From positions 57,943,812-58,007,811 of the forward strand of contig CM047426.1 in the NCBI GenBank assembly GCA_026168455.1: a stretch of DNA of 64,000 nt, given 5' to 3'. The notes beneath the pieces were generated by a model that saw only the letters and a program-made list of their open reading frames with translations, was not told the origin of the DNA and did no database searches. A program made the position numbers and the translations under genes. Positions 778 through 57,914 of the stretch are shown piece after piece. The DNA comes from Theocolax elegans. Taxonomy: Eukaryota; Arthropoda; Insecta; Hymenoptera; Cerocephalidae. Numbering within the stretch: position 1 is the first letter of the stretch; each line of letters starts with the position of its first letter.

Positions 778-780
778 TTA

Positions 781-850
781 GAGAGACAGAGAGGTAGTGA
801 GAGAGGAAGAGAGAGAGAGGGAGAGAGAGAGAGAGAGCGAGAGAGAGAGA
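781..850. repeat. (GA)n microsatellite at LINE 3' end
   Basis: An imperfect (GA)n tract runs directly into the (GATT)n tail of the adjoining minus-strand LINE. The same arrangement is seen at four other LINE 3' ends or flanks in the window. Confidence 0.85.
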
Positions 851-1179
851 GATTGATTGATTGATTGATTGAGTTGTTTATTCGGCCATGAGGGATTAGA
901 AACCCCATAGGCACCATATGCAAACTATTACAGCGAATATATTCTTAAAACTAGATAACAACAAAATAAGTTTCAATATCACGCAGAAATAACAAAATAA
1001 AATAAAATCAATGTAAAATAACAATAACAATAAAATAAAATATATGTACAATTTGATAAATGGATAATGCATTAAAATACAAAATAAAATAAAATATATA
1101 ATAAATATCACCGATCGCAGGAAAGAGCGTAAAATACAAATAAAAGATAAAAATAAAAGATTAACGGTTTTAACTAGAT

Positions 1180-3994
1180 CTACACCAGGTGAGGGATGGA
1201 CCGCAAAGCTATGCCTTCATTCGTGACTCGCAAAGTCCAGGCTGCCTGATCAAGCCCAAACAGATGATTGAATAGCATGATTTTGAATTTATCTATACAT
1301 GAAGGATCAAAGGTGAGTGATGGAAAATGATTTAGAATACGAGTGGATGTAATGACAAATGATCTATTTAGAGCTTCGGTGCGTGCAGGAAGATACATAA
1401 GTGACCTAGGTGGATGACGGGAGGAGAAACGAGGAACATGACCAGGGGTATTGAGTTGGGTGAAGTGATCTGCCAGGTATGAAGGTGACTTATGAGCAAT
1501 AATGCTGAACGCCAGAAAACCAATGAGGTATGAGCGTCTGGACTCATCGACAGCCATCTCAACCCCAGTCTATACGGGGTTACATGGTCACGTGTCGCTA
1601 TATTGCCCCATACAAATCTCACGCATGCATTTAATAACCTCTGTAATTTTAAATTTCTAGTCTGGTCTACATCATTATAGACCGCACACGCATAATCAAA
1701 GTGGGGAGAAATGAGTGATTCCACAAGAATCCTACGAAGTTTCATTGAAAGTGACTTGTAATAATAGCGTAATGAGTGCAGAACTCCATGAACGCGCCTA
1801 GAGATTGTCATGACTTGTTTTGACCAGTCGAGGGTGGGTGTAATTAATAGACCCAACGATTTTACCACATTTTCATATTCCAGATAGTTTTCAAACAGTT
1901 TAACTCTCGGAGCAGTGTTCAGGTTACCCTACTACCCAGGATCATAACCTTCGTTTTTTTTACATTCAATGAAAGGCCGTTTTCCAGTGCCCATCTAGCT
2001 ATCGCGTTCGCATCGTGAGATACCCGTTGAACTCCACTGGCAATATCGGCTGGAAAAAACGAATGATAGACCTGGGCGTCATCGGCAAATAACATATAGT
2101 TACTATGTTTGAGAACCTTAGGTAGGTCATTAATAAAGATGGAAAATAAGACCGGATCTAGAACACTGTCCTGAGGCACACCCGCATTCACCTCGAGCCA
2201 GTCAGACAACATGCCAACCTCATCCACAACGGCATGCGTGCGACCCACAAGATATCTGTAGAACCAATTGAGTACAATATCTGAGCAACCGATGTCACCC
2301 AATTTTCGGATGAGTTGATCATGAGGAACCGTGTCGAAGGCCTTGGAGAAATCAAATAAGACTAAGATGGTGATCATTCTCGAGTCAATAGCTCTTCTTA
2401 CGTCGTCCAATACCCCCAGAAGAGCTGATTGAGTACTATGGCCCCTTATAAAACCCGCTTGTCTGGCCGATAATAAATTATTGAATTCAAGATACTCAAC
2501 CAGCTGATCATGCACCAATCTCTCCAACACCTTCGACACCTCACAGAGTTTGGCAATCGGTCTCGTGTCAGAGCACGTCACCAACCTACTCGATTTCGCC
2601 AACGGGAACAGTATAACCCTCTTCCAGCAATCAGGGAACCATCCAGATGAGAGCATACCATTGAAAAGTTCTGTTAACGGTTGAGTAATTTGAGGTTCTA
2701 ACAATTTTAATATTCTAATTGAAATACCATCAACACCCGAAGTCTTGGAAGAGGATCTTACAATTGCCCGCTGTACTTTTTTGGCTAACACCGGCAGGAA
2801 AGCGAAGGAGGGTGATGAAGGGAGATGACCAAGGTTAGCTAGGATAGATGCAAAAGAATGAATAGTGAGTGGTGGCGTGTGATAAGAAATGGATGCGTAA
2901 TGAGTGTTGAGTTGATGTGCTGAGAAATGTTTTAATGGCGATGAATTATGTTTTGAGCCTAGACCCATGCTTCTGAGAAATTTCCAAACTTCAGTAGGAT
3001 TATCACCATTATTGAGCTTAGATTGCAGATAATGAAATTTGCTTGAATTAATAGCGTTATTAACCTGTTTCCTCAGTACTTTGTATGCATTATAATCGAT
3101 GGGTGAGCTCGAGCTGCGAAAGAGCCTAAAAGCAGCATTTCTGGCTTTAATGTCAGATCTAATCTCCTGCGTAACCCAAGGCTTATGTTTATTTATTACT
3201 GCTATAAATTTAGCAGGTGCAACGGCATTAAATGTTGAAATAATAGAGCTGCACAGAAGAGATAATGAGGATGAGAGTATGTCAAAATGGTTGAATGATA
3301 GTGAAACCATACGGAGAGGCTGGTCAGGCCATGCAGGTGAAAGTGAATCAGTGATGGATGAAAATACTGGTAATGAAAGATGTGTTGGTCTGTCCATAAA
3401 TGAGGAGAATGTGGTGGCAAGGTGATAAAGGTTGATCTTCTCCCAGTCTCTTTTCCAGAATTTTTTGACACCCCCCTGCGGTTTATTGATCTTAAGGGAA
3501 ATGATAATTGCATCATGACCCGCCGCAAAGGGTGCACTAGACTTATTATAGATAAATTCAGGTACTGGCTCACGAATTAGGAAAAGATCCAACCAAGTAT
3601 GAGATGAACCCGTCGACGTCACTGCATGGTGTGTCGGCTCAGATGGGATAAGGAAGAGACCTAATGCTTCCAAACTCCCTTTCAGCATGTTCGCTGCAGC
3701 ACTGGAAGATTTCATGTCAATATTGAGGTCACCCGTTATAATGACATGAATAAAATTAGGGAGTATGGCAGCTGTAGTATCAAAAAATTCCGTTGGATAT
3801 GCGGCAGAAGGCCTGCGATAAACCACTGCCAACGCCAACGCCACCGTCTTATTTACTAACCTTAGAACAATGAACTCGGGGGCGTTCGAGTAGACAGGGT
3901 CGGAGTGAGCTAAGATGGTAACTGCAAACTCATCGCGTACATAAGCCGCTACACTGCCACCCTTTGAAGGTTCCGCGCAAAACTCTCCATCCAC
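1180..3994 (-). pseudogene. LINE ORF2: endonuclease and reverse transcriptase, broken
   Basis: ORF2 of a non-LTR element would nick target DNA and copy the element RNA at that nick. The frame 3994-1919 carries the C-terminal half of an EEP endonuclease (GDLNID, HTWLDLFLI, and GHDAI with the catalytic H) and then RT blocks: TRPIAKLCEVSKVLERL, the QAGFIRGHSTQSAL block, LFDFSKAFDTVPH with the first catalytic D, GVPQ-S-L-P, and LFADDAQVY with the DD pair near residue 635. The endonuclease N-terminus is absent. In the GVPQGSxLGP block both glycines after Q and L are D (GVPQDSVLDP), probably inactivating. A frameshift at about 1919 moves the frame (SLGLLITPTLDW at 1868), and a second near 1550 is needed to reach the C-terminal end at 1180 (LRVTNEGIALRSIPHLV). 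Confidence 0.88.
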
Positions 3995-4407
3995 GGTGGT
4001 GGAGCGCCCGCCATCGCGTCGGTATCGGTGGAGATATCGCGCGACGCGTGGTTGGGCGGTAGAGGCGTGTTGCCACGAGGTTGCTTGGCAACCTGTGACG
4101 TCGATGGCGAAGGAGGCGAGGCAACGCGCTTGGAAACGGAGGAGGGCGGAGTAGGCTTGGTTGACGGCGCGGTACAGCAGATCGCGCTAGCTTGCCGCGG
4201 CAACCCAGGCGGTGGCGCCCTCACTTCAGTGGGAGCCGCGGTTAGCACTTTAGATTTCGCCAGTACACAACAACGTCGCTCCGAAGTGCCCGGCGCGACC
4301 TCAAAACAATGTGTGTGTGTAATATTATTACAAGCGATACAGACCTCTGTGTAGTCCTTCCGTGTCAAGCGAACGCCACACACGAAGCAGCTGCGCGATG
4401 TTGCCAT
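3949..4407 (-). pseudogene. LINE ORF1 fragment with PHD-type zinc finger
   Basis: The frame starts with MATSRSCFVCG and shows a cysteine pattern CxxC, then CIACNN, then HTHCFE, then CC. This fits the PHD-like zinc finger found in ORF1 proteins of CR1/Jockey-type LINEs. A proline-rich, low-complexity stretch follows. At its 3' end the frame runs directly into ORF2 sequence (the overlapping ORF2 frame opens at 3994), although a normal element has a longer ORF1 and a complete endonuclease N-terminus between the two. I therefore infer an internal deletion that removed the ORF1 C-terminus and the start of ORF2. ORF1 proteins of this kind bind the element RNA. Confidence 0.7.
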
Positions 4408-4695
4408 TTAGCCGACCTTGTAGTGTGCAAAACTGCTAACATGCAAATGTTGGAGTCCCTGCTCACAGAATACCAGATATGCCGCCTTCTCTCCACAATC
4501 TCGCAGCTAATCTCCAAACTTTAGATGTAATAAATGTCGAAACTTGGAGACAACTGACCGCAGAATTAACGATTTTTTATAAAAAATAATCACTGCAATC
4601 AGTATCCGTCCCCACGATGTTGGCTGTAAAAATCTCGAGGCAACTGGGTGAGTATTTAAGAGGATATAAAGCGGAACGAAACAACAAGCGACTTC

Positions 4696-4700
4696 GTACT

Positions 4701-4707
<7 letters not shown>
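4696..4707. repeat. Candidate target-site duplication, right copy
   Basis: Second copy of GTACTCACCGAG (first at 766-777), again directly followed by (GA)n. See the left copy for interpretation. Confidence 0.4.

Positions 4708-4761
<54 letters not shown>
4703..4761. repeat. (GA)n microsatellite upstream of LINE copy 1
   Basis: A nearly pure (GA)n tract of about 58 bp borders the 5' end of the minus-strand LINE. With the tract at 781-850 it suggests that the LINE entered a (GA)n/(TC)n array. Confidence 0.9.
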
Positions 4762-7019: not shown

Positions 7020-8690
7020 AATTAACTTTCAAATATTTCAGGATAAACTATATTTTTTGTATAAAATTTTGTGTTTTCACTAAGTATTTGTTTTTTATTT
7101 TTTTAATTAATATATTATTCTTTTTATTAATAATTTTATTATTTAGAAATATTTTTAAATTATCTTTTGATGTTGCTCTTGATAAAGCTACATATTATTG
7201 ATCATGGCTAAATACAAGTGTATTTAAATTCAAACCAACTTTGTCAAAGGATTGACCTTGAGTTTTATTTGTAGTCATAGCAAAGCTAAGTCTTCTTGGA
7301 AATTGCCTTCGCATCATATGAAAAGCAGTTCCTTCTAATGATGGATATAAATCAATACGTGGTAATAAAACTATTTTACCAGCGTATTTACCTGTAATTA
7401 TTTCTACTGTTATAATCTATTGTTTTACATATTTGATTATCATTCTTGTGCCATTACTAAGTATTACACCCTTATTTAATATTAATTTTTGTGGAGGTAA
7501 TCCATTAGGTCTTAATGAATTGAAAAGTTCTGTTGGGATTGATTCTCTTAATATAGCATTAACATCACTTTTAATTCCATCATCGCTATAAAATATATAA
7601 CTATGTTCATCAATTTTTTCGACTATATATTCATTACTTTTTAATACATCACAGTTCAAAGGAGATAATATTACTTTATTTTTTAACGCCGGGTCATTAG
7701 GATTAATCTTTAGCCCTAAGATTTCTGTTATTAAATATTTATTACAAGTGAATTGTATTGGTATTTCTTGAACATTGTTTTGTAATTCATATTTTTAATT
7801 CATATTTTTAGTCTTAAATTTTCATTTAATGATAAATTTGAGAAATATGACCATAATCTACTCCTTTTCACACAAGTTTCAATAATTTTAATTCTATTCC
7901 CATGTGGAACTATTGGTAATGTTTATCTAAAGTCATTTACAGTTCGTGTATCTGCAAACGATTTAACACCTCGAACATGCAATAATAGTAAATAGTCGTA
8001 AGTAACAAGTTTATTAATTTTTTTTCTTTTAATCCACGCTTTTTGTTTTTTGTCAAAACCATAATAATAAGGAAATTAAGTATATAAATATTACCTTGCA
8101 TTCTCGTCATCTTTATTCGATTTAAACCATGATGTTAATGTTGTATTTATATTTTTATCAATTAATGTATTTTCTTGTCCTTTTTGAATATATATCGTTC
8201 ATTTTCTTCATGAACAGGTAATCTTATAATAACACAAGATTGTTCATGTAATTTAAATTCTAAAATATGGTACGCAGCCTCCGATGCACATACATATTTA
8301 GTGGATAAATGTTGTGATATTTCATCATAATTGTTTGTATTTTCATCAGTTTCTTTCATATCAACATTAGTATTTCCAATGTAAATATTAGTAAAGCAGT
8401 GTCAAAGCCCTTATTAAAATATTTAATAAATATTTGATAGATTTTTTTGTATTACATATTTCGAAGTTAATGTGACTTTCCAATAATAATAATAATAATA
8501 ACGGATTATATGGCCCGACGAAACTATTATCTTCAATTCTATGTTTTGAATATATTATTTTGTTACCATTATTTCTTCGGCGATAAAACGGGTAACTGTC
8601 TGGATTAAATATGTTTGATTAACATATGGTTTAGGAAAATTTTTTATACAGCGTGTTTTATTCTCATTCAAACATATGCGATTGTTATTA
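7020..8690 (-). pseudogene. Helitron transposase fragment (Helitron 3), deleted and frameshifted
   Basis: On the minus strand several frames together read like the Helitron at 52918-60562. At 8162-8359 the Rep-C part is NYDEISQHLSTKYVCASEA and IIRLPVHEENERYIF. At 7417-7659 the helicase part is VEKIDEHSYIFYSDDGIKSD and NGLPPQKLILNKGV. Around 7200-7330 lies the helicase motif V/VI area. Compared with the related 883-aa frame, the Walker A and Walker B part is missing between about 7930 and 7990, so an internal deletion is inferred. The 3' end of the coding region lies near 7030, close to the Penelope relic. The upstream end is cut at about 8690, next to a (GA)n tract and LINE copy 2. Confidence 0.8.
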
Positions 8691-8742: not shown

Positions 8743-8760
8743 AGAGTGAGAGAGAGAGAG
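8743..8760. repeat. (GA)n tract at 3' end of LINE copy 2
   Basis: A short (GA)n tract passes directly into (TGAT)n, the 3' tail of the minus-strand LINE starting at 8761. Confidence 0.8.
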
Positions 8761-10228
8761 TGATTGATTGATTGATTGATTGATTTATTAGGTATATTAA
8801 GGGGTAAACCCCATTTACACTTGGTGAATACAGTTTGAATAAAATTTACATTCAAATGAAAATAGAATAAACGCAATAAAAATGAAATAAATAAAGTGGT
8901 GTTAAAAACAATATTAATATAACAATATAACTTAACAAATAACATAATGTAACGCGCAAATAAAACGAAAAATCAAATCTAATAAATAAATAAATAAACA
9001 AATAGATTGATATTAAAAGAATATAAAAGATGAGCGTATACATAGCTGAACAATATAATATTAAATATATAACAATAAAACAATAAGCCTGTGCACACCT
9101 CAGAGCACACGTTCCAACGAATATAAAATTAGTAGAAATCCATTATAGATATATAAATAAACAGATAAATAAGTAATTATATGAATGAATAAATAAATAA
9201 ATAAATAAGTGAATATGTTGGATATGTTGGAGCCCGTGCTCGGAGGACTTAGAAGGCCTGTAAGGGAGGGTAGCTAAGACCCTCACGACAGACCCTCAGC
9301 TCCCATGACTGCCGGTCAAGCTCGGACAGATAGCGAAGAAGAGTGGATTTGAATGATATGAAAGATAGCGGATTAAAATCGGTGAGGGGCAGCTGATTGA
9401 TGAGATGTGATGCTGTGATTAAAAATGAATTGTTTAGTGATTCTGTTCTTGGTGGTTAGTAAGTGAGCGAGACAGGTGGAAGACGCGAGAATAAACGAAC
9501 CGATGATGATGAGTAGTCACGTACGGTGAAATGTTCGGCGAGATATGGAGTGTTTTTATGGGCGATGATATTATAGGCACAGGATCCAATGAAGAGAGAT
9601 CTCCTAAGCTCGACCGACAGTCAGCCCAACTCCAAGTGGTATGGAGTTACATGACCTCTCCATGGAATATTGCCCCATACAAATCTTACACAGGCGTTTA
9701 GGAGACGTTGCAATTTAAGGTTTTTAGTTCCATCTAAGTTATCATACACCGCGCACGCATAATCGAAATAAGGTATAATTAACGCGTCAACTAGATTTTT
9801 CCTTGTCTGTCGTGAGAGGGCAAGCCTCAGAAGGCGCAGAGAGTACAGTACTTCATGCACACGCTGGGAGATAGAAGACACCTGCCTCGACCACTCCAGG
9901 GTAGGCGAAATCCATACTCCTAATGACTTAACTTCTAATGAATAATGAATAGATTCATTGTTAATCGTCACCCTCGGAGCAGTGTCTAGGTCAATGCGGG
10001 AAATGAAAGCTTAGCTACCAAGGATCATCACCTTGGTTTTCGGTACATTCAATTTAGCCCATTTAAAGCTGCCTATTCGTTAATAGCATTTGCGTCCTCT
10101 GAAATGTGATTTATACCTTGAGAAAATTCAGAGGGATAAAAGGAGTAGTAAATCTGTGTGTCGTCGGCAAAGATCATATACTGTGAGTAATGCAGGACCT
10201 GTGGTAAATCGTTGATAAAAATCGAGAA
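8761..10228 (-). mobile_element. 5'-truncated LINE copy 2
   Basis: The minus-strand element runs from an RT fragment at its upstream end to a (GATT)n-type tail at 8761. The 3' UTR (about 8790-9255) is AT-rich with AATA repeats. Its 5' end is truncated inside the RT at 10228, where the sequence becomes (GA)n and then the tail of LINE copy 3. Its C-terminal coding region is clearly related to LINE copy 1 (NLKLQRLLNACVRFVWGNI in both). Confidence 0.85.
9257..10228 (-). pseudogene. LINE copy 2 ORF2, C-terminal half
   Basis: Reading the minus strand from 10228, the frame begins in RT (FSIFINDLPQ, then YMIFADDTQIYYS with the catalytic DD at 10160-10171). An open stretch at 9971-9621 follows (VKSLGVWISPTLEWSRQV, then FDYACAVYDNLDGTKNLKL). 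Further frames end in LSELDRQSWELRVCREGL with a stop near 9257. Stops and frameshifts separate the pieces (for example around 9980-10080). The gene is 5'-truncated before the GVPQ block, so no complete RT is present. Confidence 0.85.
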
Positions 10229-10248
10229 AAGAGAGAGAGAGAGAGAGA
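10229..10248. repeat. (GA)n tract between LINE copies 2 and 3
   Basis: About 20 bp of (GA)n sits exactly between the truncated 5' end of LINE copy 2 and the (TTTGA)n tail of LINE copy 3. Confidence 0.9.
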
Positions 10249-10705
10249 TTTGATTTGATTTGATTTGATTAGTTTAAGCGCACAATTCCTGAGATTATAA
10301 AATTAAAACAAAAGTATTTACATAACAAAAGTTATTTACAAAATAAAATAATATAATAATATAATAAACAACTAAATACAACAAATAACAAATAAAAATT
10401 AATAAATAATAAGCTTTAACAAAATATAGGTAACGTAGCAGTATAAAGCGTCGTGCAGCGCCAAGATCAAAGCATATAAAATATAAAATAAATACTTACA
10501 AGACATCAATTTAGACGCAAGAAATAAAATACAATAGGAAGAAATCGGCGGAATATAAAAGGTAATCCATTAATTAATACAAAATAAATAAATTAAATAA
10601 GCGCTCAGAAGTCCGGCAAGGAAGGGCAGACGATTCCCTCATTTCTTATCCTCACGTCCCAAGCCTGTCGATCGAGCTCAGATAGATACGATGAAAGGGA
10701 TGATT
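10249..10705 (-). mobile_element. 5'-truncated LINE copy 3 (3' end only)
   Basis: The tail is (GATTT)n on the plus strand, followed by an AT-rich 3' UTR and the last codons of ORF2. On the minus strand from about 10705 it reads SSYLSELDRQAWDVRIRNEGI and stops near 10610. This matches the C-terminal end of LINE copy 2 (LSELDRQSWELRVCREGL), so copies 2 and 3 belong to one family. The 5' end is cut at the next (GA)n tract. Confidence 0.8.
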
Positions 10706-10720
10706 TGAGAGAGAGAGAGA
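10706..10720. repeat. (GA)n tract between LINE copies 3 and 4
   Basis: A short (GA)n tract lies between the truncated end of LINE copy 3 and the GATTGATTG tail of LINE copy 4. Confidence 0.85.
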
Positions 10721-12720
10721 GATTGATTGAAAACTTTTAGTATGCCTAAGTTACAAGTAACCTTAAGGCAACAGAAAATTACATTATAGTTATATCATTA
10801 CTGTAACAATATAAAATTAAATATAAAATTATAAAATATTTATATCAACGGAAATATAATTAATAGTAAAACATTTATAAATTAACGGCGCAACCAATAG
10901 ATAACAATAATTGATATAAAACAATAATTAATGATAGTAATAATGAGTATCGCAAAATAATCCCATAGAACGTAAAATTACATAATATCATTCGCCCTCA
11001 AATGCTCAAATAAACGATTCTTAATATATGAACACTAGTGCTAAGTCTAATAGTAGGTGGCAGTGAATCCCAAACATCCATCGCTTGGATTGTAAAAGAC
11101 TTTTGATAGACACTACTGCTAGCTTGAGGTCGCTGAAAGGATGAGTAAATTAAACGTTCGGAGCGACGTATATCACTATTGGGTGGAGGGAATAAAACCT
11201 GGAGATAATCAGGTCTTTTATTTGTTAGAATTTGGTAAGTAGATAACCCTAAAAAATATTGACGCCTCGTAGCAGCCGATAACCAATTTAGTTTAGTATA
11301 GTACGGATCTAACTTCGCGTCCTTTCTAAGGCGGAAAATATAACGTACACACATATTGAGAAGACGCTGAAGCTTCAAATTCAGGTAATCTGGTAAGTCG
11401 CCAAATACTAGACAGACATAATCAAAGTGAGGCATAATTAACATCATAACCAATCGCTTGCGCATAGTGACAGACAGGAAATTACCCCTATTTCGCAATT
11501 TATGTAGAACACCATGCACAGATGAAAATTTTCGGTAATAATAAGACTTAAATTCTTAACAGTACTCAATTCGATGTAACAGTACTCAACGTATTCAATT
11601 CGATGACCAACAACAATTGGTGATAAAAAATTCCTATCTATCAACCTATGCTGCTGGGAAGATCCAATGATAATTGCCTTAGTTTTATTAAAATTAATAT
11701 CCAGTCCATGAGATCTAGCCTACTCTGACACCCTACCACAATCATAATTTAAATTCAAAATGCAATTATTAATATTAGATGGAGTACAATGAATATAAAG
11801 CTGTAAGTCGTCAGCAAACAGCATTCCCTTACAATAAGTTAACACCTTCATAATGGAGTTAATAAAAGCAAGGAACAACACTGGACCAGGGGTAGATCCT
11901 TGGGGAACACCCGAAGAGGTATTCATAAACAAAGAAACTACATTACTAAGATCAACAACAGCCTGTGAACGCCCATTGAGATACGAGTAGAACCAATCAA
12001 TCACCTCGTTATGAAAATTTAAACTTTTTAAGCTTTTCAATAGTTCAAAATGACTAATCGTATCAAAGGCTTTTTTAAAATCGAACAGGATTAATATTGT
12101 CATCATTCCATTTTCCATACCAAACCGTATATCCTCAGTAACCTTTAATAAAGCTGTCTGTGTACTATATAAGCTTCGAAATCCAGATTGGTAAGGAAAA
12201 AAGAAATTATTACTCTCTATAAACGAAGTGATTTGTAGGGTTATCAATCTGTCAAACACCTTGGCAAAATGGGGTAAATTGGCTATTGGTCGAGTATCCG
12301 AGGGCGACCTAGGATTGGCTATCTTGCTAAGAGGAACAATTGCAGCACGTTTCCACATAGTAGGATACTTTTCTGTCGAAATTGAGAGATTAAATAAATC
12401 TGCGAGATATGGTGCGAGAATTGGTAAAGAATCTTTAAAATATAGTAAAGATAGGCCATCTAAACTGCGACTCTTAGCCTTCGGCAAGCAGAAAGACAAA
12501 GCAGCGCTAACCTGATGTACTGCCACACACTGAAAAGAGAAAACAGGGTAATCCAACGAATATGGTGTCTCATGAATCTCACTCAATTGATCCAATGTGC
12601 AAGGTGGGTGGTGATTTGTTACTACGGTATAATGCTGGAACAACTCTTCAGCGTCAAAGAACTTCAAGGGAGAAGTAAACGAATTACTGACTAGTCCAAT
12701 TTTATGTAAAAGGCGCCAGC
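10721..12720 (-). mobile_element. 5'-truncated LINE copy 4
   Basis: A minus-strand LINE with a short GATTGATTG tail, a 3' UTR (10730-10985) and an ORF2 that is recognisable up to about 12715 (WRLLHKIGL, the counterpart of VWKFLRSMGL in LINE copy 1). Upstream of that the sequence changes to a degenerate tandem repeat. It is more diverged from copies 1-3 than they are from each other, yet its 3' end is also attached to (GA)n. Confidence 0.85.
10985..12715 (-). pseudogene. LINE copy 4 ORF2, reverse transcriptase to C-terminus
   Basis: The frame 12667-11720 covers most of the RT: RSLDGLSLLYFKDSLP, the WKRAAIVPLSK block, DTRPIANLPHFAKVFDRL, QSGFRSLYSTQTALL, LILFDFKKAFDTISHFE, SSGVPQGSTPGPVLF and GMLFADDLQLYIH with the catalytic DD. 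It stops at 11720. The C-terminal region continues in another frame at 11519-10998 (MPHFDYVCLVFGDL, NLKLQRLLNMCVRYIF) after a disrupted stretch at 11520-11720, and a last frameshift near 11010 alters the end. The L of the usual GSxLGP block is P (GSTPGP). The endonuclease and ORF1 are absent because of 5' truncation. Confidence 0.88.
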
Positions 12721-12730
12721 CACGCGATTA

Positions 12731-13160
12731 AGCGCGAAAGATTCGCAACATAAACTCCGTATGACCGTACCGAACGCTATAATTAGGTTATTAACAGACT
12801 CTATTAAGCACAAAAAAAATCGCAACACACACTCCAGATGACCGTACCGCACCAGGTGTCGTTAATAATACTATTAAGTTATAAATTAATTAAATATTAG
12901 AAAAAATCAAAAACTTAACAAAATAAATACATAAATTAGAGCATTAATATCGAAAAATTCGCTTCGTGCGACCATACCACATGCTACAGTGAGTCTAACA
13001 ATAGACACAAATAAGCGCGAAAGCTTCACAACAAAGATTTCGCAAGACCGTACCACGTGCTACAATTAGGATATAAATATAGTATATTAAGCGCCAGAGA
13101 ATCACAACACACACTTCGCATAACTGTACCACGTGTCGTCAATTATACAAATAAGATATA
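12731..13160. repeat. Degenerate tandem repeat of about 75 bp
   Basis: Around five diverged units share AAGCGCGAAAG at the start, then ACACACACTTCGCA and TGACCGTACC, and end in an AT-rich piece with AATTAGG. Units begin near 12731, 12806, 12950, 13010 and 13088. It stands directly upstream of the truncated LINE copy 4 and may be a LINE 5' UTR repeat array or an unrelated minisatellite. Confidence 0.6.
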
Positions 13161-13521
13161 ATAATACAGTAATAAATCGAAGTGTGAAAGAGCAAGACGC
13201 ACTACAATAACACTAAAATCAATAATAAGTACTAGCACGTATGAGCGAACGAAAATTTACGCAATTAGTGTTATTAATAATAAACAATAATAAACTCTCA
13301 CTACACATCACTCAGTACTGTCATTGACTGGTAATATGACAAATCAAATTCGCCAAAGTACAAAAAGACAAAGCCGCGCAGTACAGATGACAATCGATAT
13401 GACCAGTCTCTTGACTCATGAAGACGTTGAATTCGTTGGCCGGTCGAGTAACTTGAAATAATGAAAGTAGGTTAGGCCATTATACGGACTCCCAAGCTCA
13501 TAAAATAAAGCATTGAAGTAT
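13161..13521. other. No recognisable feature
   Basis: AT-rich sequence without a supported reading frame, lying between the tandem repeat and the solo LTR. Confidence 0.4.
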
Positions 13522-13525
13522 ACTT
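13522..13525. repeat. 4-bp target duplication ACTT, left copy
   Basis: ACTT here and ACTT at 14548-14551 bracket the solo LTR. Confidence 0.65.
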
Positions 13526-14547
13526 TGTGACGTGGTATTCGCGTACCCGGAATGATTAATTTTTTTAATAATTAAATTAACCGTTAGGCCGCGTTGCCTA
13601 ATACCACGCACACAATTATTTATTTTGTTATCGCGAACTGCGGGCTGTCGCCAGGAACACGAGTTCGCTGGGACGATCGGTGTGGAGGATTCGGGCAATC
13701 CTTCTTGCCTCGACACGATATAAAAATAATTAGGATGTCGGCGGGAGCGGGGAGAACGAAATAAACACAATTAATTAAAATAAAATGAATAAAACATTTA
13801 TTTTAATATATTAATTAACAAGATGGCCATCCAGGCCTCGTGCCGCGACAATGTTCTTTCGCGCGGGCGGAAGTATCGGGAGTCAACCGGATCGAGATAC
13901 TCGCCTGCGGTTGACTCCTTCCTGTTCTCCGCTATTCGGGTACCGGCGTACCCGAATACACTCCCGATGTACACACACACATACACTCGGGGTAAAGGGG
14001 GAACGCGCGGTAATATAAGAAGACTTACCGGGATGCGCCCCGTGGATGGCCCAGCCGATCCTTGTCCCAGTGTCCTCCTGGGCAACGGAGGACCGACGTC
14101 GGCTGCGGTGGTGGAAGGCGGCCCTGTGCCGTGGCGAGTGCCTCGCGAACCGCGTCCGCACTCACACACTGACTTCCCGTCCTTATCACACACACCAAAA
14201 ACACTCGCGGCTCACCTCGCGAGGACGTTCCGGGTTGTCGACGGCTTTGCGCCTCACGCGCCCTTTTCTTAGCCGGAAAAACTATCTCACTCGACACCGG
14301 ATAATTTGTCCGCCTCGAGCGGCGGATCGGGACATACTGATAGGCATTTGCCTAATTTTCGAAGAAGGGATGAGAGTGAGAAACACACACACACTCGCGC
14401 TCTCATCCCTACGTAATTGTACACTTGATCTACGTAAACAAATGTCGTCGGTTGGCCTTGACATACCAAAGGCTCCGTCGACTTACATTTAACATGAGTT
14501 TAAATGCTTTGTTCGCCGCGAATAGTTGTGTGACGATTTCCGTCACA
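13526..14547 (+). mobile_element. Solo LTR, copy 1
   Basis: A 1022-bp element starts TGTGACG and ends CGTCACA, the short inverted TG...CA termini of an LTR, and is flanked by ACTT/ACTT. A second copy of the whole unit lies at 25301-26871. No internal LTR-retrotransposon genes are next to it, so recombination between two LTRs probably removed them. The middle is GC-rich and contains CA-rich stretches. A 4-bp duplication fits Gypsy-type elements, but the superfamily is inference because no coding region is present. Orientation is arbitrary; both copies point the same way. Confidence 0.75.
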
Positions 14548-14648
14548 ACTTCCACACAGATTTAGGAGCCCAAGGAGTCCTGCTCCGTATCTAAAAAATA
14601 TTATATTATATTATAATATTATATTAATTAATCTTCATCTGCTTTCGA

Positions 14649-34620: not shown

Positions 34621-35455
34621 ATTTCGTCGCTAGGGAGCGCGACGCGCTTAGTCCGTTGTATTATACTTAGAGTGGAAGTACTTTCGCAAATGGTTGCTGC
34701 AAGATGGTGCTAAATATCATAATTAATATACCAAACTTATGTCAATAAGCAGAATTATAATAAATGTCGTGTTTATGTATTGTAGAAAGATTAATTTGTT
34801 TTGCCAGTGCATCCATTATTGTACATATATATATCAAGATTAATGCTTGATATCATCATGTACTGCTACGTGTGTCTTGGCACGTCATTGTGACGTCGCT
34901 ATAAAGGGAATTCTTTATGCAACTAATACCGATTACGTAAAGAACAAATATATCAAATATAACAAAATAAAGTATAATTAACATATTTATTCGGGGAAAC
35001 ATGGACATGTGACATGGGATGGGGAAACCATGAAAACAATGAAATGGTACGCATGTTTGCTCTCTCCCTCTCTCCCTCTCTCTCAACAAGACTAAACACG
35101 CGCTTGCGCATTCGCACCGTTTGCGTCACCACTGACGAAGTTCACGTGGATCGATTCCCGTTACAGGTTTACCAATGTCTCAGTAAAAAGAGACTTGTAA
35201 ACATTACCTCAAATAACTACTTGCTATCTAACGAGTTTTATTTTCAAAATATATCACACTTACATGTTCATTTTATCTTTATTCTAAATATGAGGGTTTG
35301 TTTAAATTATTATACAAATATTAATATAGTCGTGAATATAACTACCAACTGCATACGTATCTTATATCGAGTATACGCGTGTAACCAAGTATAAATTATA
35401 ATCAGAATTATAATCAGTACCATCAAACACATGTGCTTATTGGCCCGTTTCATTT
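34621..35455. other. No gene recognised; CT-rich tract at 35055-35090
   Basis: A (CT)n-like stretch (CTCTCTCCCTCTCTCC) lies at about 35059-35085 without a LINE end attached. The frame across 35014-35394 has no recognisable domain and includes this low-complexity tract, so it is not called. Confidence 0.35.
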
Positions 35456-46581: not shown

Positions 46582-47900
46582 TTACAATATTTCTTTAAAC
46601 ACTATATTTTTAGTGTAATTTTTATTTTCGTCCTTTAGTTTATCACTTGCTATTTTTGCATTGTTTAGTAATAATATTTTCAAATTTTTTCTATTTCTAG
46701 CTCTTGAAAGTGCTACGTATAATTGACCATGGCTAAAAACTGGGGTTGGTAAATAGATACCAACGTGTTTATATGACTGTCCTTGTGATTTATTAATAGT
46801 CATTGCGAAACCTAATCGTATGGGAAATTGTTTTCGGCGCATATTGAATGGTATTTCTTCCTTAGATGGTGACAAAGTGATTCTTGGTATTAAAACTAAT
46901 TTTCCAATTTTTTTTCCGCTTATAATTTCTGCTTTAATTAAATGTTTCATAAGTTTTTTTACTAATAACCTTGTTCCATTATAAAGACCTTCATTTACAT
47001 TTAAATTTCTCAGAAGAATTACTATTGCACCTACTTTTAATTGTAATTTATGCAGAGGAAGTCCATTAGGCGTAAGCGTATTGAGAAATTCAGTAGGTAA
47101 CATGACATCTAAGTTTTCTCCATTATCATCTTCCGCTGTATCTACACTTAAATATTCAATAGTTTGCCCTTCCATTATATCTAAAATTTTATTATTAATT
47201 TCAATTGCATCATTGTTTGTGGGGGCCAGTATCACCTTATCATTTAAATCTACATCATTCATTTTTATTTCATTTCCAAAAGTTTCTGCAATTATATCAT
47301 TTTCTTTTGTTATTAAATCAACAGGGATTTCGAGCAGTTCATTTTCTTCTTCATATATATTTAAACGTTTACCTTCACCTTCGTTCAATAACCATTGTCT
47401 AAAATGATTGTCATTATCTGTCACTCGAAGATTTTCATTTAGTGTCATGCGTATAAAATTTGGCCATAAGTAGCTGTTTTTAACTGAATTTTTGATTACT
47501 TCAGTACGACTACCATGTCGGATAATTGGTAATGTTTGTCTAAAATCGCCAGAAACAACTAACATTTTATTACCAAATATTTTTTTATTATTACATATAT
47601 CTTGAAGTAGACGATTGACTGCTTCAAAGGCATGTTTTGATGTCAGATATTTCATCCCATATTATAATTTGAACCTCCTTTAAATTTTTAACATCTATTG
47701 AATTTGATTTAATGTTACATGTAGTACTTTCTGTGATATTAAATGGTAATTTAAATGTTGTTTGTACTGTTTTTCCGTTATGTAATAAATTTGCTGCAAT
47801 TCCTGTCCAGGTAACACATAAAAATGAAATACTTGAGAATTTTAGGTAGTCTATTAGAACGTTAAGTAAATAACTTTTTCCATTTCCTCCTGGTCCATCA
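46582..47900 (-). pseudogene. Helitron 1 helicase domain
   Basis: This PIF1-like superfamily 1 helicase would unwind the donor strand during rolling-circle transposition. The open frame 47655-46582 contains LVVSGDFRQTLPIIRHGSRT (motif III region), NLRVTDNDNHFRQWLLNEG, FAMTINKSQGQSYKHVGIYL (motif V) and YVALSRARNRKNLKILL (motif VI, with the arginine finger). The Walker A block GPGGNGKSYLLN and TWTGIAANLLHNGKT lie at 47890-47790 in another frame, and the WDEIS Walker B at about 47670. Two frameshifts therefore split the helicase, one in an A-run at about 47893 and one at about 47655. Confidence 0.88.
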
Positions 47901-49722
47901 ATAAAAATGTTTTTTTTTCTTCAATTTTTAAATGTTGCACAACAGTATTGAAAATATCTTTTTGATGATTTTTTAAAGAATTTACTTTGACTTCTAATTC
48001 AGTAAGTGTGCAACTTTTGTTATATGATATCGAAGTATCATCACTTTCTTCTATGTGTGTAGAAATAACGGGTAATTTGAAATCATTTAAAGAATATCCA
48101 TGTAATTGTAAATTTTTATCAATAATGTTTAATGCAAGATTTTCACCTACATTTTGATCGTATTTTGGGTGGTAAAAAATGTGTTTGTATTTTTCGAATA
48201 AATCTTTTGCATTAATGGGATTGTGAAAAATACAAATATATGCAAATAATTCACAAAGAGCAGTAGGAAATTGTAATTGTGATGCTTCTTCCAAACATCT
48301 ATCCCACTCTTTATCTTCATTCACCAAATGTCTAGCTACAGAAGCTTCATAAAATGTAGAATAAATTATACCATCCACAGTACGTAAATCCTGAAATGAG
48401 GATGCTCCTTTGACATGTAAAAGTAATAATCTTATAAAATATCGTTCACGATCTTTTGGATTCACCAAATACATTCTGCTTAATATAGGTTTATTTGTTT
48501 TTTTTCTTTCATTCCATGTTTTTGAATTATTATCAAACACATAATGTAATGGTATTTCAGAATATAAATAATTTCGTGCTTTAAAATTGATTTTATTTAA
48601 TTCAAAGTATGCTGTTAATGTAGTTTCTACATTTTTTTTTAATATTTCTTTTTCTTTCCCTTCTTTAAAATATACTTCTTGTTCATCTTGATTGTGAATA
48701 GCTAATCTTATTATGGTATGTGAAAGTTCATGTAAAGGGTATTCTAACAGTCTGTGCATAGCTTCTGGTGGACATAAATATCTTGTATTAATATACTGCT
48801 TAATTTCATCATATTCGTATTCATTGTTTTCGTTGTCTTCATTATTAGTTAAATTAGAATTGTCTTTTAATTTGATGCCTGCATTACGTATTTCAATATA
48901 CGCACAGTCATGTCCTTTATAACAATATTTGAATAAGTATTTTATGCATTGTACTGTAGAACATACTTCGACATTAATGTGACAATTAAATTGTAACAGT
49001 AAATAAGGATTATATGGAACAACAAAACAATTATCAGCTACTCTATTGTAATATTTACCTTTATAATTGATTTTTTTGCCATCATTTCTTCGCATATACG
49101 ATGGATATCCTGATGAATTAAAAGTTGTTTTATTATTATATCTTTTTGGAAAATTCTTCTTACATTTTTTTGTCACTTTTTCCATGCAAGGTGAACTTAT
49201 GTTTTGTTCTCCACAAGGTCCGTGAATCATAAACTGTTTAACAATATTATACAACCGTGGATAGATATCTTCATTTGGAATTTCTGCATTTATGAGTGCA
49301 TCAACTTTTTCTGGAGTATTGATTTTATAATTCTTATCTAAGAATAATAGCATATGCATGTGAGGAAATCCACGTTTTTGAAATTCGATAACATAGGTGT
49401 AAGCGATACAGTTTCCTAAAACACCTTGTTTAACTACCAATTCTTTAAATTCTTTTACTTTTTGATGAAACACTTTAACTACTAAATCTGGTCTATCAAT
49501 TGCATTTTCATATTTTTCTAAATTTTCAGTTATTTCTTTCCAATTTGGATTACATGTCATAGTAATAAATAAGTCAGGTTTTCCGTAACGATTTACTAGA
49601 CTCATTGAGTCAATATAATTTTGTTTTAAAAATCTTGAACTCCCAACAAAATTTGATGGCAAAATAAACATTTTTCCAATCTTTACATTTTCAGATTCTT
49701 TTTTTCTATGTAAATAATCCAT
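47854..49722 (-). pseudogene. Helitron 1 Rep (HUH nuclease) domain
   Basis: Rep nicks and joins single DNA strands. The frame has NRYGKPDLFITMTCNPNWKE, the HUH block QKRGFPHMHMLLFL, the MIHGPCGEQN block and the tyrosine motif YLFKYCYKGHDCAYIEI with two Tyr. Then come NTRYLCPPEAMHRLLEYPLH, RMYLVNPKDRERYFIRLLLL and VKGASSFQDLRTVDG. The frame then loses register just before Walker A (FLLMDQEEMEKV instead of FIDGPGGNGK). At the upstream end, MDYLHRKKESENVK continues the sequence of the next frame across a one-base shift at 49727. Confidence 0.88.
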
Positions 49723-49731
49723 TACGCCTTT

Positions 49732-51106
49732 TTAATAATCGCTTCTTAAAATATCTTGGTTTTCCTTTATAAAATATAATCTTGATTGTTCAACTTTTAC
49801 AAATGCATCAATTGTAAACTGTTGAGAAACTTTTCCCATATTAAGGTATGGATTAAATCCATTTCTCATAGAAAGTCTGTAATTATAAAATTGCAAACAT
49901 GAAATATTGTTTTTCTTATATTTGCATTTCATATTAGGCATCCATCCATATCCTCCATTTGGATAAATAAGTGGGTATGTCATTGGATCAGTGTGTTTAC
50001 TTATTAAAGGAATACTAATTGGATTGTCATATTTTGAATATATAACTATATCCCGCTCTGAAGTAGGCAGTCCATTTTTTCCTACAAATACCATTGCAAC
50101 TTCATTACAAGTAGCTTCATTATATATATTTTTATCTAATTTTTCATTTCGTTTTATACACATGGTAACTGTTTGCGTTATAGTACCACTTTTAGCACAC
50201 CGTTCTAATTCTTCTTTTTCTACCTCATACATCATTTTATAAGCTTTAGCATAAGGATTAACATTTCTAATTAAGCTGTCTAATTTACTTAACAATTCTA
50301 ATTTTGTATCTAAATTATTTTTAAAACTTTTTCTTTCAGCTGTAGCTAATTCATTATCTAGAACATATAATTGTCCATATTTCCGAGCCTCACTTTCATT
50401 TGGATGTAAAGCAAAAACATTGTGGTATATTTGACCACAAATTCTTATAATTTGATAACTTGTCATAATTAGCTCCAAAGCTTGCAAAAGCTAAAGCATT
50501 ATTATATATTCGAATATTTTTGCGAAAATTAAGACTATCTTCTGATGTACCTGTAGCTAATTGCTTTAATTTTTCTGGATAAGCAGGAATTGTTGGCAAC
50601 TCTACGTTTCCCTTGTGACAACAATTAGAAAATTCTTTACCTTTTGTATATTCAAAAGCAAAATGCTTAGCATTGCAATGTTTACAAGTTTGAGACATAT
50701 AACCCAAATTGTTTTCGATAATTATTTTCTCATCAAAATCTATATTTGCTATTCCACCTATTATTTTGGATTTACTGAATAATTTTAGATTTTGTTCATT
50801 TTTAATCAAGATACGATCTTTTAATACTTTCAAACTAGCTATGAACGCTCGCTTCGCTCGCGATTTACATATACTGATGGTATGACAAATATGAAAAATT
50901 TTTACATAATTGTGCACAACCGTATAACGGAAGTGTCTTATATTTTTGTCATCGAAAAAAGTGTTGTTCCTCAAATATCTCAAAAAGTTGTCCATCAATT
51001 TGATTGAAATTTTAAGGTTATATTCTTTATCATTTGGGAACTTTATAGTCCTATTTCCAGTTATAATGATATTTACAGGTTCATAAATACAGTTATTCTT
51101 CAACAA
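49732..51106 (-). pseudogene. Helitron 1 N-terminal domain
   Basis: Two overlapping frames, 51106-50396 and 50487-49732, join at a frameshift near 50440. The first has the cysteine-rich Helitron-like N-terminal pattern (TCKHCNAKHFAFE, then FSNCCHKGNVELP) and YNNALAFASFGANYDKL. The second continues IIRICGQIYHNVFALHPNES, YGQLYVLDNELATAER, NPYAKAYKMMYEVEKEE and HTDPMTYPLIYPNGGYGWMP. The true start was not determined; residues before the first ATG at 51106 are not clearly coding. Confidence 0.8.
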
Positions 51107-51109
51107 CTC

Positions 51110-51400
51110 AAAAACTTGAGGTTCTACAAAAAAATTTAAATGGACGAAATATTCGTTTCAAAATTACAAAACATTTTCTATGAAATACTTTGCAATTGGA
51201 AACGAATTTCTTTAGATAAACATATAGAAACGCTTAAAAAAATGCTAAATGATCAATAATACACGTATTTTTGTAATAAATGAAAAACTTCAAATTCTAC
51301 ATAAAAACTTTATATAGACGAAGTGTTTGTTTTAAAATTCCAAAACTTTTTTCTATTGAACATTTTGCAGTTCGAAAAAAAATTTGATTAAATATCAAGT
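51110..51400. repeat. Two diverged 173-bp direct repeats
   Basis: AAAACTTGAGGTTCTACA at 51111 and AAAACTTCAAATTCTACA at 51284 start units that continue with GACGAA, TTCGTTTCAAAATT or TTGTTTTAAAATT, and then a TTTGCA-containing end. They sit directly upstream of Helitron 1. Confidence 0.6.
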
Positions 51401-52917: not shown

Positions 52918-53911
52918 TCCTAAAACTTTTTTAGGACTTGTTGATTTAACAGCTGATAATAATACCAATGAAAAAGAACTTGACGAATTAAAACATATTA
53001 AAATATTATCAAATTTAAAGGAATCAGAAAGAAAAAGAGCGTATAAAGAAAAAATGACAGATGAAATGAAAATAAAGGAAGCTGTAACAAAAAGAGAGGA
53101 TAAGGTAAAAATGACCAGTGAAATGAAAATAAAGGAAGCTAAAAGAAAAAGAGCGTATAGAGCAGAAAGGACATATGAAATGAAAATAAAGGAAGCTGAA
53201 AGAAAATGAGCGAATAGAGGTAAAATGACGAATGAAATGAAAGTAAAGGAAGCTGAAAGAAAAAGAGCGGATAGAGCTGACATAACGAATAAAATGAAAA
53301 TAAAGGAAGCTGAAAGAAAAAAAGCACATAGAGCAGAAATGACGAACGAAATGAAAATAAAGGAAACTGAAAGAAAAAGAATGAAAAGAGCAGAAATGAC
53401 AAATGAAATGAAAATAAAGGACGCTGATAGAAAAAGAGCGGATAGAATAGAAACGACGAACGAAATGAAAATAAAGGAAGCTGAAAGAAAAAGAGCACAT
53501 ACAGCAGAAATGACGAATGAAATGAAAATAAAGGAAGCTGAAAGAAAAAGAGCGGATAGAGCTGAAATGACGAATGAAATGGAAATAAAGAAAGCTGAAA
53601 GAAAAAAAGCACATAGAGCAGAAATGACGAACGAAATGAAAATAAAGGAAGCTGAAAGAAAAAGAATGAAAAGAGCAAAAATGACGAATGAAATGAAAAT
53701 AAAGGAAGCTGAAAGAAAAAAAGCACATAGCGCAGAAATGACGCACGAAATGAAAATAGAATTGACAATTGAAATGAAAATAAAGGAATCTGATAGAAAA
53801 CTGAAAGAAAAAAAAACGAAAAAAACAGAAATGACGAATGACATAAAGGTAAATGAAGTAAAGAAAAGTAAAATGTATTATAATAGTATGACAATACAAC
53901 TAAAAACATAA
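52918..53911 (+). pseudogene. Helitron 2 N-terminal charged repeat region
   Basis: After GLVDLTADNNTNEKELDELK comes a tandem repeat of 19 codons (57 bp), consensus MTNEMKIKEAERKRADRAE, about 13 units from about 53030 to 53765. It is nearly all charged and should form a long coiled coil or single alpha-helix. Units differ mainly at ADRAE, AHRAE or MKRAE. A stop codon at 53208 splits the region (the open frame restarts at 53225), and the frame stops at 53911. Similar R/K/E-rich repeats stand at the N-terminus of some Helitron proteins. Helitron 1 shows no such array. Long antisense frames here (52888-54035) are mirror artefacts. Confidence 0.75.
53030..53765 (+). repeat. 57-bp in-frame minisatellite
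   Basis: Around 13 units of 57 bp, each with GAAATGAAAATAAAGGAAGC. The unit length is a multiple of three, so changes in copy number keep the reading frame. Confidence 0.9.
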
Positions 53912-54048: not shown

Positions 54049-54822
54049 TTAGGAAGTTTAAATAATCATTGTATTTTCTGTAAAGCAATACACTTCAAGA
54101 ATGAAATCTCACATGATAAAAAATATACTAACTGTTGTCATAAAAATAAAATATTTTTAAATAATGATAACTCATATCCAAAAGAATTAAAAAATTTATT
54201 ATTTCAAAATACTTCAATAAGTACAAATTATGAAAAAATATACGGGGATACAATAATTCTTTTGCATTTGCTAGTTTTGGGTCAAAATTAGTAACTTTTA
54301 ATACTCCTGGGCCACAAGTATTAAAGATATGTGGTCAAGTATACCATAATTCATATGCATTACATCCAAATAAAAATGAATTTCCAAAATATGGACAATT
54401 ATATATAATCAACAATGAAATAGCAAATAAATATAGAGCGAAAGATTATAAAATAGATAAACCTGATATAAATTTATTAAATGAATTATGTAAGTTTCTA
54501 ACAACACATAATCCTTATGCAAAAGCATACAAAATGATGTATCAAATAGAAAAAGAAGAGATTAACAGAGCACAAAATAATAACATTACACCACGTGAAG
54601 TAGTTATTGACAATTGTGCAACAAATAAGTCATATTTTGCTTCATGCAATGAAGTTGCTGCAGTATATGTAGGAATTGACGGAGAACCACCAATTGACCG
54701 TGATATTCGTATTTATCCTAAATCTGATAAACCACAGATAATAAATATTCTCAGTAAACATCTCGACCCAATGTTATATGTAATCCTACATGGAACGAAA
54801 TTCAAGAAAATTTCATGTTGAA
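54049..54822 (+). pseudogene. Helitron 2 N domain and first residues of Rep
   Basis: The frame from about 54049 reads CIFCKAIHFKNE, then NCCHKNKIFL and YPKELKNLL, the cysteine pattern also seen in Helitron 1. A frameshift near 54260 leads to FAFASFGSKLVTFNTPGPQ, LKICGQVYHNSYALHPNKNE, NPYAKAYKMMYQIEKEEI, and (frame 54534-54821) NEVAAVYVGIDGEPPIDRDI and SKHLDPM. Directly after LDPM the sequence jumps to CNPTWNEIQEN in another frame. Helitron 1 has about 140 residues between these two blocks, so an internal deletion is inferred near 54775. The coding sequence is then split by the Penelope element at 54814. Confidence 0.8.
54800..54813. repeat. 14-bp target duplication of the Penelope insertion, left
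   Basis: ATTCAAGAAAATTT here recurs exactly at 57609-57622. One copy encodes the Helitron Rep residues IQEN before the insertion; the other repeats them after it. Confidence 0.92.
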
Positions 54823-54855
54823 ATTTTGATTTTATCACTTGGTATTTTTTAATAT

Positions 54856-55406
54856 CAGTTGAATAGAATTTATCGATCTTCCCAAGTCAGAGGTGAAGGT
54901 AAAAAAGAAATTTTAATACATTTTTCTTTTTTCGTAACGTTTCGGTAGACAATGCTACCCTCTTCAGACTGTATAAAATTTATTAATTTCGATTAGTACA
55001 TCTCAGAATATATATAATGTAAAAAGGGAACGTAAATGAAAAAATTAAAAAATATACCTTCTAATATCAATATCGTACAATGTTTACAATATTATTTCGC
55101 CGCAAGTCGATTTAAATTTTCGCTTCTTTTTCCTCATTCTAAACACGAGGAAACGTCAAACAGATGTATACACGACGAAAATTTCTGCTGTATATGAAAC
55201 AATACTAGATTCGCGCTTTCTTATATAGGTATAATTAGTAAGTTTGTGTTTATATTTTTTCTATTTATGACGCATGATCAAGGTTGTGTACAGTACGTTT
55301 GATTTCAGATAAATTTAAATTTAAAGGCTTTTCATTCTATATATAATTTGCGAATACTGTTTATTTAATTTAATTGAGTCTTCTTGTTTGTTTATTGAAT
55401 GTTTTT
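54856..55406 (-). repeat. Left inverted terminal repeat of the Penelope element
   Basis: Positions pair with 57056-57606 with a constant sum (112462), so there is no net length change. I saw one mismatch in the roughly 300 bp compared by eye (near 55130). It includes the reverse complement of the last ORF codons. Confidence 0.92.
54939..54967 (-). ncRNA. Hammerhead-like motif in the left terminal repeat
   Basis: Reverse-complement copy of the motif at 57495-57523 (CTGAAGA, GGTAG/CTACC stem, GAAAC), because it lies in the inverted repeat. Confidence 0.45.
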
Positions 55407-57606: not shown

Positions 57607-57914
57607 TTATTCAAGAAAATTTGTTACCATATGAAACAGCTATAGATCGTCCGGATTTAATATTACGCGTTTTTAATCAAAAAGTTAAAATTTTAAAAAA
57701 TGAACTTTTAAAAAAAAGTATTTTTGGAGAAGTTAAAGGTTATGTTTATGTGATAGAATTTCAAAAAAGAGGATTACCACATATGCACATGTTAATTTGG
57801 TTGCATAATGATGATAAATTACGAGATGTTGATCAAATTGATTCTCTTATAAGTGCTGAAATACCTGATGAAATTAAATATCCTAGATTATACAATATAG
57901 AAAAAATAATATGA
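57607..57914 (+). pseudogene. Helitron 2 Rep, HUH part, after the Penelope insertion
   Basis: Continues from the target duplication as QENLLPYETAIDRPDLIL and then the HUH block VIEFQKRGLPHMHMLIWL, ending IPDEIKYPRLYNIEKII with a stop at 57914. A one- or two-base shift is needed to enter the next frame, which opens with MIHGPCGMQN at 57911. In Helitron 1 the same two blocks are contiguous (YNIVKQFMIHGPCG), so the break is a local frameshift. Confidence 0.85.

What the first reader, a model, noticed from the sequence alone, without database searches (positions are those of the whole stretch)
8743..12720. Stack of three 5'-truncated LINEs, each with its 3' end on a (GA)n/(TC)n tract
On the minus strand the order is LINE 4 - (TC)n - LINE 3 - (TC)n - LINE 2 - (TC)n. 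Each 3' tail ((AATC)n or (AAATC)n) meets the microsatellite directly, and the truncated 5' ends of copies 2 and 3 also meet it. LINE copy 1 (851-4695) is likewise bounded by (GA)n on both sides. Four of four copies with visible 3' ends do this, which points to preferential target-primed insertion into (TC)n with repeated use of one array. Microsatellite- or repeat-targeting LINEs are known (for example Waldo, and the fish Kibi and Koshi elements). A (TC)n-targeting Jockey/CR1-like family in this lineage would be notable.
Basis: partly seen in the sequence, partly recalled or inferred. Interest (0 to 1): 0.8.

Follow-up and report, generated by a model that had tools for sequence, protein, structure and literature searches.

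The report
LINEs that insert into TC repeats
Several related jumping genes in this probably insect genome land mostly inside TC-repeat tracts, in one direction, and pile up there head to tail.

Summary
The pattern is real and is not confined to this window. Four different LINE families here end in a short tail, (AATC)n or (AAATC)n, that runs into (TC)n. In copies elsewhere a TCTCTC/CTCTCT run lies within 25 bases of the tail in 31 of 33 LINE4-family ends, 23 of 24 LINE2-like ends and 13 of 20 LINE1-family ends. Background: 0.5% of window positions. Two other LINE families of the same genome: 1 of 21. The (TC)n is target, not cargo: 8 of 12 truncated copies also start at it, and the window holds an uninterrupted TC tract into which a copy has inserted elsewhere. 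No LINE4-family end lies at GA; 14 of 44 downstream flanks hold another clade member, all in the same direction. Best reading: target-primed insertion with the nick in the GA strand and reuse of arrays. ORF1 finger, lack of RNase H and tails suggest a CR1/L2-like clade; no named references were available. Corrections: LINE 4 is not 5'-truncated at 12720, and the LINE1 family is less strict than the others.

The parts
780..852 (.). (GA)n/(TC)n tract at the 3' end of LINE 1, followed by a second 5'-end-like sequence (766-777)
851..4704 (-). LINE 1: 5' end after (TC)n, ORF1 with PHD-like finger (3949-4407), EN-RT ORF2 in two pieces (1919-4186 and 1368-1928), tail (AATC)5 into (TC)n
4705..4760 (.). 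(GA)28/(TC)28 tract at the 5' end of LINE 1
8748..8759 (.). (GA)6/(TC)6 tract at the 3' end of LINE 2
8761..10229 (-). LINE 2: 5'-truncated inside the RT, tail (AATC)n; relatives L022/L037, L028/L038 and 25 more distant loci
10230..10247 (.). (GA)9/(TC)9 tract between LINE 3 (3' end) and LINE 2 (5' end)
10248..10706 (-). LINE 3: 5'-truncated 3' fragment, tail (AAATC)n; relatives L034, L035 (95%)
10707..10722 (.). (GA)8/(TC)8 tract between LINE 4 (3' end) and LINE 3 (5' end)
10723..14603 (-). LINE 4: internally deleted copy (joint 12729/12731), interrupted by a 1-kb insertion at 13526-14547; tail (AATC)2
34906..35259 (+). repeat copy with an uninterrupted TC-rich tract (35060-35084): paralogous empty site of the LINE4-family insertion in L001

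Best explanation
A clade of non-LTR retrotransposons in this genome (at least four families, three tail types) inserts by target-primed reverse transcription into (GA)n/(TC)n DNA. Inferred steps: the element's APE-type endonuclease nicks the GA strand; the 3' end ...GAGA-OH pairs with the ...UC that ends the tail unit of the RNA ((AAUC)n, (AAAUC)n or (AUUC)n) and primes the cDNA; so copies lie with their sense strand on the TC strand and TC remains on both sides. Because the target survives each insertion, the same array is used again and copies accumulate head to tail. Shown here: junctions, strand bias, TC at both ends, one empty site, stacking. Inferred: the nick, the pairing, and the protein responsible.
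For: 3' ends with TCTCTC/CTCTCT within 25 bases, counted from the tail's last C: 31 of 33 (LINE4 family), 23 of 24 (LINE2-like), 13 of 20 (LINE1 family). GA in that place 0 of 33 in the LINE4 set, the only set tested for it. Background 0.5% of window positions; control families 1 of 21. 5' ends: 8 of 12 truncated copies, and all 8 full-length copies, of the 20 long LINE4-family loci. Empty site: flanks of L001 match window 34906-35259, where the TC-rich tract is uninterrupted. Stacks: 14 of 44 downstream flanks hold another member, 14 of 14 in the same direction. Tail units differ but end in TC. Recent activity: L003 and L005 are 99% alike over 5.5 kb, and 4 of the 10 loci read have an open 964-aa ORF2.
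Against: A stricter count is lower: uninterrupted TC directly behind the tail of 4 or more bases in 24 of 33 LINE4-family ends and of 6 or more in 18 of 33 (its script missed the window's own (TC)8); the rest have irregular TC-rich DNA or none. LINE1 family: 7 of 20 fail; L078 has no TC, L067, L068, L072, L077, L079 and L084 have at most short or irregular TC, and L076 passes without a recognisable tail. L015 and L040 end in unrelated sequence, L032 in a short TCTCTTTC. LINE3 family: L034 has only a short TC, L035 none. 4 of 12 truncated 5' ends are not at TC (L002, L010, L011, and L013 about 70 bases off). Only one empty site was found. One genome, no biochemistry, and samples of capped searches. 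Some flanks are copies of one TC-rich repeat, so not all sites are independent.
Confidence: 0.86

Rival explanations
1. The (TC)n belongs to the element (3' tail or 5' leader) and travels with it.
For: All 8 full-length LINE4-family copies start behind (TC)n, so TC at that end alone could be carried; RTE elements of Lepidoptera often carry simple repeats in their short 3' UTR (PMC2887409, passages).
Against: Truncated copies have TC at the truncation point in 8 of 12; the empty site has the TC tract without the element; uninterrupted TC behind the tail varies from 2 to 74 bases, and from 2 to 22 among copies over 92% alike.
Confidence: 0.04
2. The target is a DNA structure or open chromatin at (GA)n/(TC)n (H-DNA triplex, GAGA-factor sites), not a base-specific nick; the tail's TC only fine-tunes the joint.
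For: Irregular TC-rich arrays are used as well as perfect (TC)n; ORF1 has a PHD-like pattern, and PHD fingers, known histone readers, have been proposed to help general targeting (PMC4120745, passages).
Against: Tail end and target share TC in all three tail types; two other LINE families do not use these sites (1 of 21).
Confidence: 0.15
3. Survival bias: the LINEs insert widely but only copies in harmless TC arrays persist.
For: TC arrays are likely neutral (inference, not tested).
Against: Copies that are 92-99% alike are already at TC; the control families, exposed to the same selection, are not; the one-way stacks are not explained.
Confidence: 0.03
4. The stacks arose by duplication of a few TC arrays with LINE pieces, not by separate insertions.
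For: L004 is a local duplication; L041 and L043 share a truncation point and array type; a TC-rich repeat recurs in many flanks.
Against: Most copies have different outer flanks and truncation points; stack members mostly belong to different families.
Confidence: 0.05

Closest known systems
Kibi / Koshi (fish, Tx1 clade; recalled, Kojima and Fujiwara 2004 not read)
   Same: APE-endonuclease LINEs that target simple repeats; Kibi is recalled as (TC)n-specific
   Different: Tx1 clade, vertebrate; here an apparently CR1/L2-like clade with PHD-like ORF1 and (AATC)n-type tails
Mino and Waldo (R1 clade)
   Same: LINEs in short repeats (Mino in AC repeats: PMC3124438 passage; Waldo recalled)
   Different: R1 clade; two R1-like families of this genome (label recalled) do not use (TC)n (1 of 21) and fall apart from the clade in the RT tree
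Togen (fish, related to NeSL), HERO families and Dong (silkworm)
   Same: Microsatellite targets: Togen (TG)n, some HERO families (PMC4640811 passages), Dong (TAA)n (PMC2887409 passage)
   Different: By established knowledge they carry a restriction-like, not an APE-like endonuclease; other targets for Togen and Dong
CR1/L2 lineages of the Jockey superfamily
   Same: PHD in ORF1 occurs in these two lineages (PMC4120745); no RNase H; short tandem-repeat tails (recalled)
   Different: Most APE LINEs are described there as relaxed in target; microsatellite targeting in this group was not seen in the passages and listings looked at

Membership tests
Non-LTR retrotransposon with APE-type endonuclease | RT domain | tested here: met
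   PF00078 at 2.4e-28 (LINE 1) and 4.1e-22 (LINE 4); 8.7e-27 (L007)
Non-LTR retrotransposon with APE-type endonuclease | APE-type endonuclease N-terminal to RT | tested here: met
   PF03372 and PF14529 at E 2.2e-4 and 2.9e-5 in L007, both a little below the curated cut-offs; many homologues carry the same domains; no PDB match by sequence
Target-specific LINE | Most copies share one insertion sequence | tested here: met
   31 of 33, 23 of 24, 13 of 20 against 1 of 21 control
Target-specific LINE | Target present before insertion | tested here: met
   one paralogous empty site; truncated 5' ends 8 of 12
Target-specific LINE | Endonuclease prefers the target in vitro | not testable with these tools
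   needs protein
CR1/L2 lineage | RT phylogeny with named references | tested here: inconclusive
   25-row clade (100/99) with hymenopteran elements, apart from the R1-like rows and RNase-H-bearing rows; no named CR1/L2 reference available
CR1/L2 lineage | PHD-type finger in ORF1 | tested here: inconclusive
   C-x2-C..C-x2-C-x4-H-x2-C in ORF1 of both families by pattern; Pfam gives only a weak C1 match and the FP domain, no PHD
R1 clade (Waldo, Mino) | C-terminal zinc knuckle in ORF2 and CCHC knuckles in ORF1 (recalled) | tested here: not met
   no C-x2-C-x4-H-x4-C pattern in ORF1 or ORF2; no cysteine in the last 120 residues of the L007 ORF2; separate from the R1-like rows in the RT tree
Tx1 clade (Kibi) | RT in L1/Tx1 group | not tested
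   no Tx1 reference sequence held

The most novel reading that the evidence does not exclude
The (TC)n target is also the element's promoter: full-length copies of divergent families begin right at the TC boundary with a shared GTRAG motif, so insertion into GAGA-type DNA would give each new copy a ready upstream promoter, as R1/R2 borrow rDNA transcription, and would explain why several families of the clade keep this target.
Probability: 0.15. Interest if true: 0.75.

Novelty: new variant of a known kind. Interest (0 to 1): 0.6.

Why it matters
Target-specific LINEs with an APE-type endonuclease are placed in the R1 and Tx1 clades (PMC4640811, passage). An apparently CR1/L2-like clade with several families, some recently active, that use (TC)n in one direction would be an independent origin of microsatellite targeting, in a group whose ORF1 finger has been proposed to help targeting (PMC4120745, passage). 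The several families and the R1-like controls in one genome make a natural comparison for what sets target choice, and the stacks may keep a record of the order of insertions.

Tried and rejected
Considered: TC as part of the element (rejected: truncated 5' ends, empty site); chance (background 0.5%); duplication of arrays (accounts for a few loci only); retention bias (control families). A PDB match for the endonuclease by sequence: none. Named reference RTs for clade placement: the protein searches gave mostly unnamed rows, so the clade rests on domains and recall. Paper searches for a printed (TC)n-targeting CR1/L2 or hymenopteran LINE: (listings only, except the papers named in the report) showed none; the library lacks most subscription journals and the Repbase reports were not searched, so this is weak evidence. 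Not achieved: a genome search for the LINE3 family, one for the 3' part of LINE 4 alone, and a count of the AATCAATC(TC)n pattern (the machine did not complete these).
Full report
What was checked. The window lies at G000:C2:57943812-58007811 of a 658-Mb assembly. It has 8 perfect GA/TC runs of 10 bases or more, 7 of them at LINE ends. The four LINEs are four different families that share only short alignable stretches. Each 3' end reads tail-(TC)n on the minus strand: LINE 1 (AATC)5(TC)n, LINE 2 (AATC)nACTCTCTC, LINE 3 (AAATC)4(TC)n, LINE 4 (AATC)2(TC)8. LINE 2 and LINE 3 are truncated at their 5' ends directly at a TC tract. LINE 4 is not truncated at 12720: compared with the full-length copy L005 it has an internal deletion, a 1-kb insertion and a 5' part up to 14603, where no TC lies.

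3' ends elsewhere in the genome. A search with the stack (2340 candidates, 40 scored, 50 places) gave 35 fetched loci; the other 15 places are the window itself, pieces that do not reach the family's 3' end, or second pieces of loci already fetched. For the LINE4 family 33 ends could be read (31 loci, one of them with two copies in a local duplication, and the window). Under a fixed test, TCTCTC or CTCTCT within 25 bases counted from the tail's last C, 31 of 33 pass; L015 (unrelated sequence) and L032 (TCTCTTTC) fail; none has GA there. Counted more strictly, 24 of 33 have at least 4 and 18 of 33 at least 6 uninterrupted bases of TC directly behind the tail (the script missed the window's own (TC)8); others have irregular TC-rich DNA. 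A search with the 3' part of LINE 2 (158 candidates, 40 scored, 46 places, 30 loci) brought mainly other families of 66-73% identity. Of the 30 loci, 24 have a readable 3' end (L063 read by hand) and 23 pass; L040 fails; L049, L052, L056 and L057 have lost the 3' end and L064 and L065 match elsewhere in the query. For the LINE1 family (2084 candidates, 40 scored, 55 places) the 20 best places outside the window whose match reached the query's end were fetched; 13 of 20 pass (one of these, L076, without a recognisable tail), six of the other seven have at most short or irregular TC, one has none. LINE3 family: the window copy has TC, L034 a short TC only, L035 none. The same test passes at 0.5% of window positions outside the LINE ends.

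Control. The RT family search (21834 candidates, 150 scored) showed two related LINE families with many copies of equal score; the two pairs compared are 99% alike. Their C-terminal zinc-finger-like motif and RT motifs look R1-like (recalled, not tested with references). Of 22 copies fetched, 21 have a readable poly(T) 3' end and 1 of 21 (L099) lies at TC, although GA was also allowed. Ten of these 21 share a CCCGTGTAAC-like flank and two more pairs share theirs, so fewer than 21 sites are independent.

Target, not cargo. In the 20 long LINE4-family loci 8 of 12 truncated copies have TC within 25 bases of their 5' end (boundaries from sequence matches; in L006 with 13 other bases between). All 8 full-length copies start behind TC, but there the boundary was set by eye at the end of the TC. 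TC at a truncation point cannot come from the 5' end of the RNA. One direct case exists: the flanks of L001 match window 34906-35259, where the corresponding TC-rich tract (25 bases, 35060-35084) is uninterrupted; in L001 a truncated copy of about 2.4 kb sits inside it. Whether a target-site duplication was made cannot be read inside a simple repeat.

Stacks. Of 44 downstream flanks (43 of 0.97-2 kb and one of 14 bases, L063), 14 hold coding sequence of another member of the clade, all 14 in the same direction; one of them (L004) is a local duplication, and one (L040) has no TC at the joint. L022 shows the same pattern on both sides. One-way stacking is what strand-specific use of (TC)n predicts.

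What the elements are. Full-length LINE4-family copies are about 5.5 kb: ORF1 of 360 aa with a PHD-like cysteine-histidine pattern and an FP domain at its end, ORF2 of 964 aa with APE-like endonuclease and RT, no RNase H match and no CCHC knuckle. L003, L005, L007 and L020, 4 of the 10 loci read, have ORF2 open from end to end, and L003 and L005 are 99% alike, so activity was recent. Closest proteins: unnamed rows at 46-48% and elements of Trichogramma, Cotesia, Bracon and Temnothorax at about 35-44%, which suggests a hymenopteran host (inference). In the RT trees LINE 1 and the LINE4 family fall in one clade of 25 rows (100/99) with these elements, apart from the R1-like control families and the rows with RNase H (nine long-branched rows were dropped from the second tree). 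No named CR1, L2, Jockey-lineage or Tx1 reference could be included, so the CR1/L2 placement is inference from domains (PMC4120745, abstract and passages) and recall.

Mechanism. Shown: strand bias (LINE4 family), TC on both sides, one empty site, reuse of arrays. Inferred: a nick in the GA strand and priming by ...GAGA-OH on the ...UC end of the tail. It fits that three different tail units, AATC, AAATC and ATTC, all end in TC, and that the number of units varies.

Comparison with print. Passages read name microsatellite targets for Mino (AC; R1 clade), Togen (TG)n, some HERO families and Dong (TAA)n, and call the Tx1 and R1 clades target-specific; Kibi's (TC)n target and Waldo are recalled. 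The kind of system is therefore known; the new points are the clade, the use of (TC)n by several of its families, the direction-locked stacks and the controls within one genome. Papers were seen as passages only (PMC4640811, PMC3747384, PMC4120745 with its abstract, PMC2887409, PMC3124438); other papers as listings.

Noticed in passing
L003, L008, L016, L017, L020, L046, L048, L061, L066, L070, L083 and window 4705 (minus strand): A GTRAG motif (often CGGTGAGTAC or TGTAAGT) lies within 14 bases after the TC tract at known or presumed 5' ends of divergent families: 12 of 132 distinct TC runs in the held loci against 4 of 121 GA runs; it resembles a 5' splice site.
   Followed up: partly
L086, L088, L091, L097, L101-L105, L107: Two R1-like families end in a long poly(T) and 10 of 21 copies are followed by the same CCCGTGTAAC-type sequence, perhaps another stacking or target preference.
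   Followed up: no
L002, L003, L008, L016, L017, L046, L084: A dispersed repeat with a long irregular TC-rich array, ending in CGCCAAGATGATGTTTGTCGGACGGACGG in several loci, is hit by several LINE families.
   Followed up: partly
window 13526-14547: 1-kb insertion in the 5' part of LINE 4 with the same four bases, ACTT, on both sides; part of it is 87% alike to the flank of L002.
   Followed up: partly
window 46582-51157 (minus) and 54234-60562 (plus): Two Helitron-like gene sets (helicase reading from the translations, recalled) and, at 55399-57141, an RT with a GIY-YIG-like end that looks Penelope-like (recalled; translations).
   Followed up: no
window 8063-8690 and 57938-58565: The flank beyond LINE 2 is 84% alike to part of the second Helitron-like set, so the stack may sit beside an older Helitron copy.
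   Followed up: no
window 53016-53758: 57-base tandem repeat, 13 copies, open in several frames.
   Followed up: no
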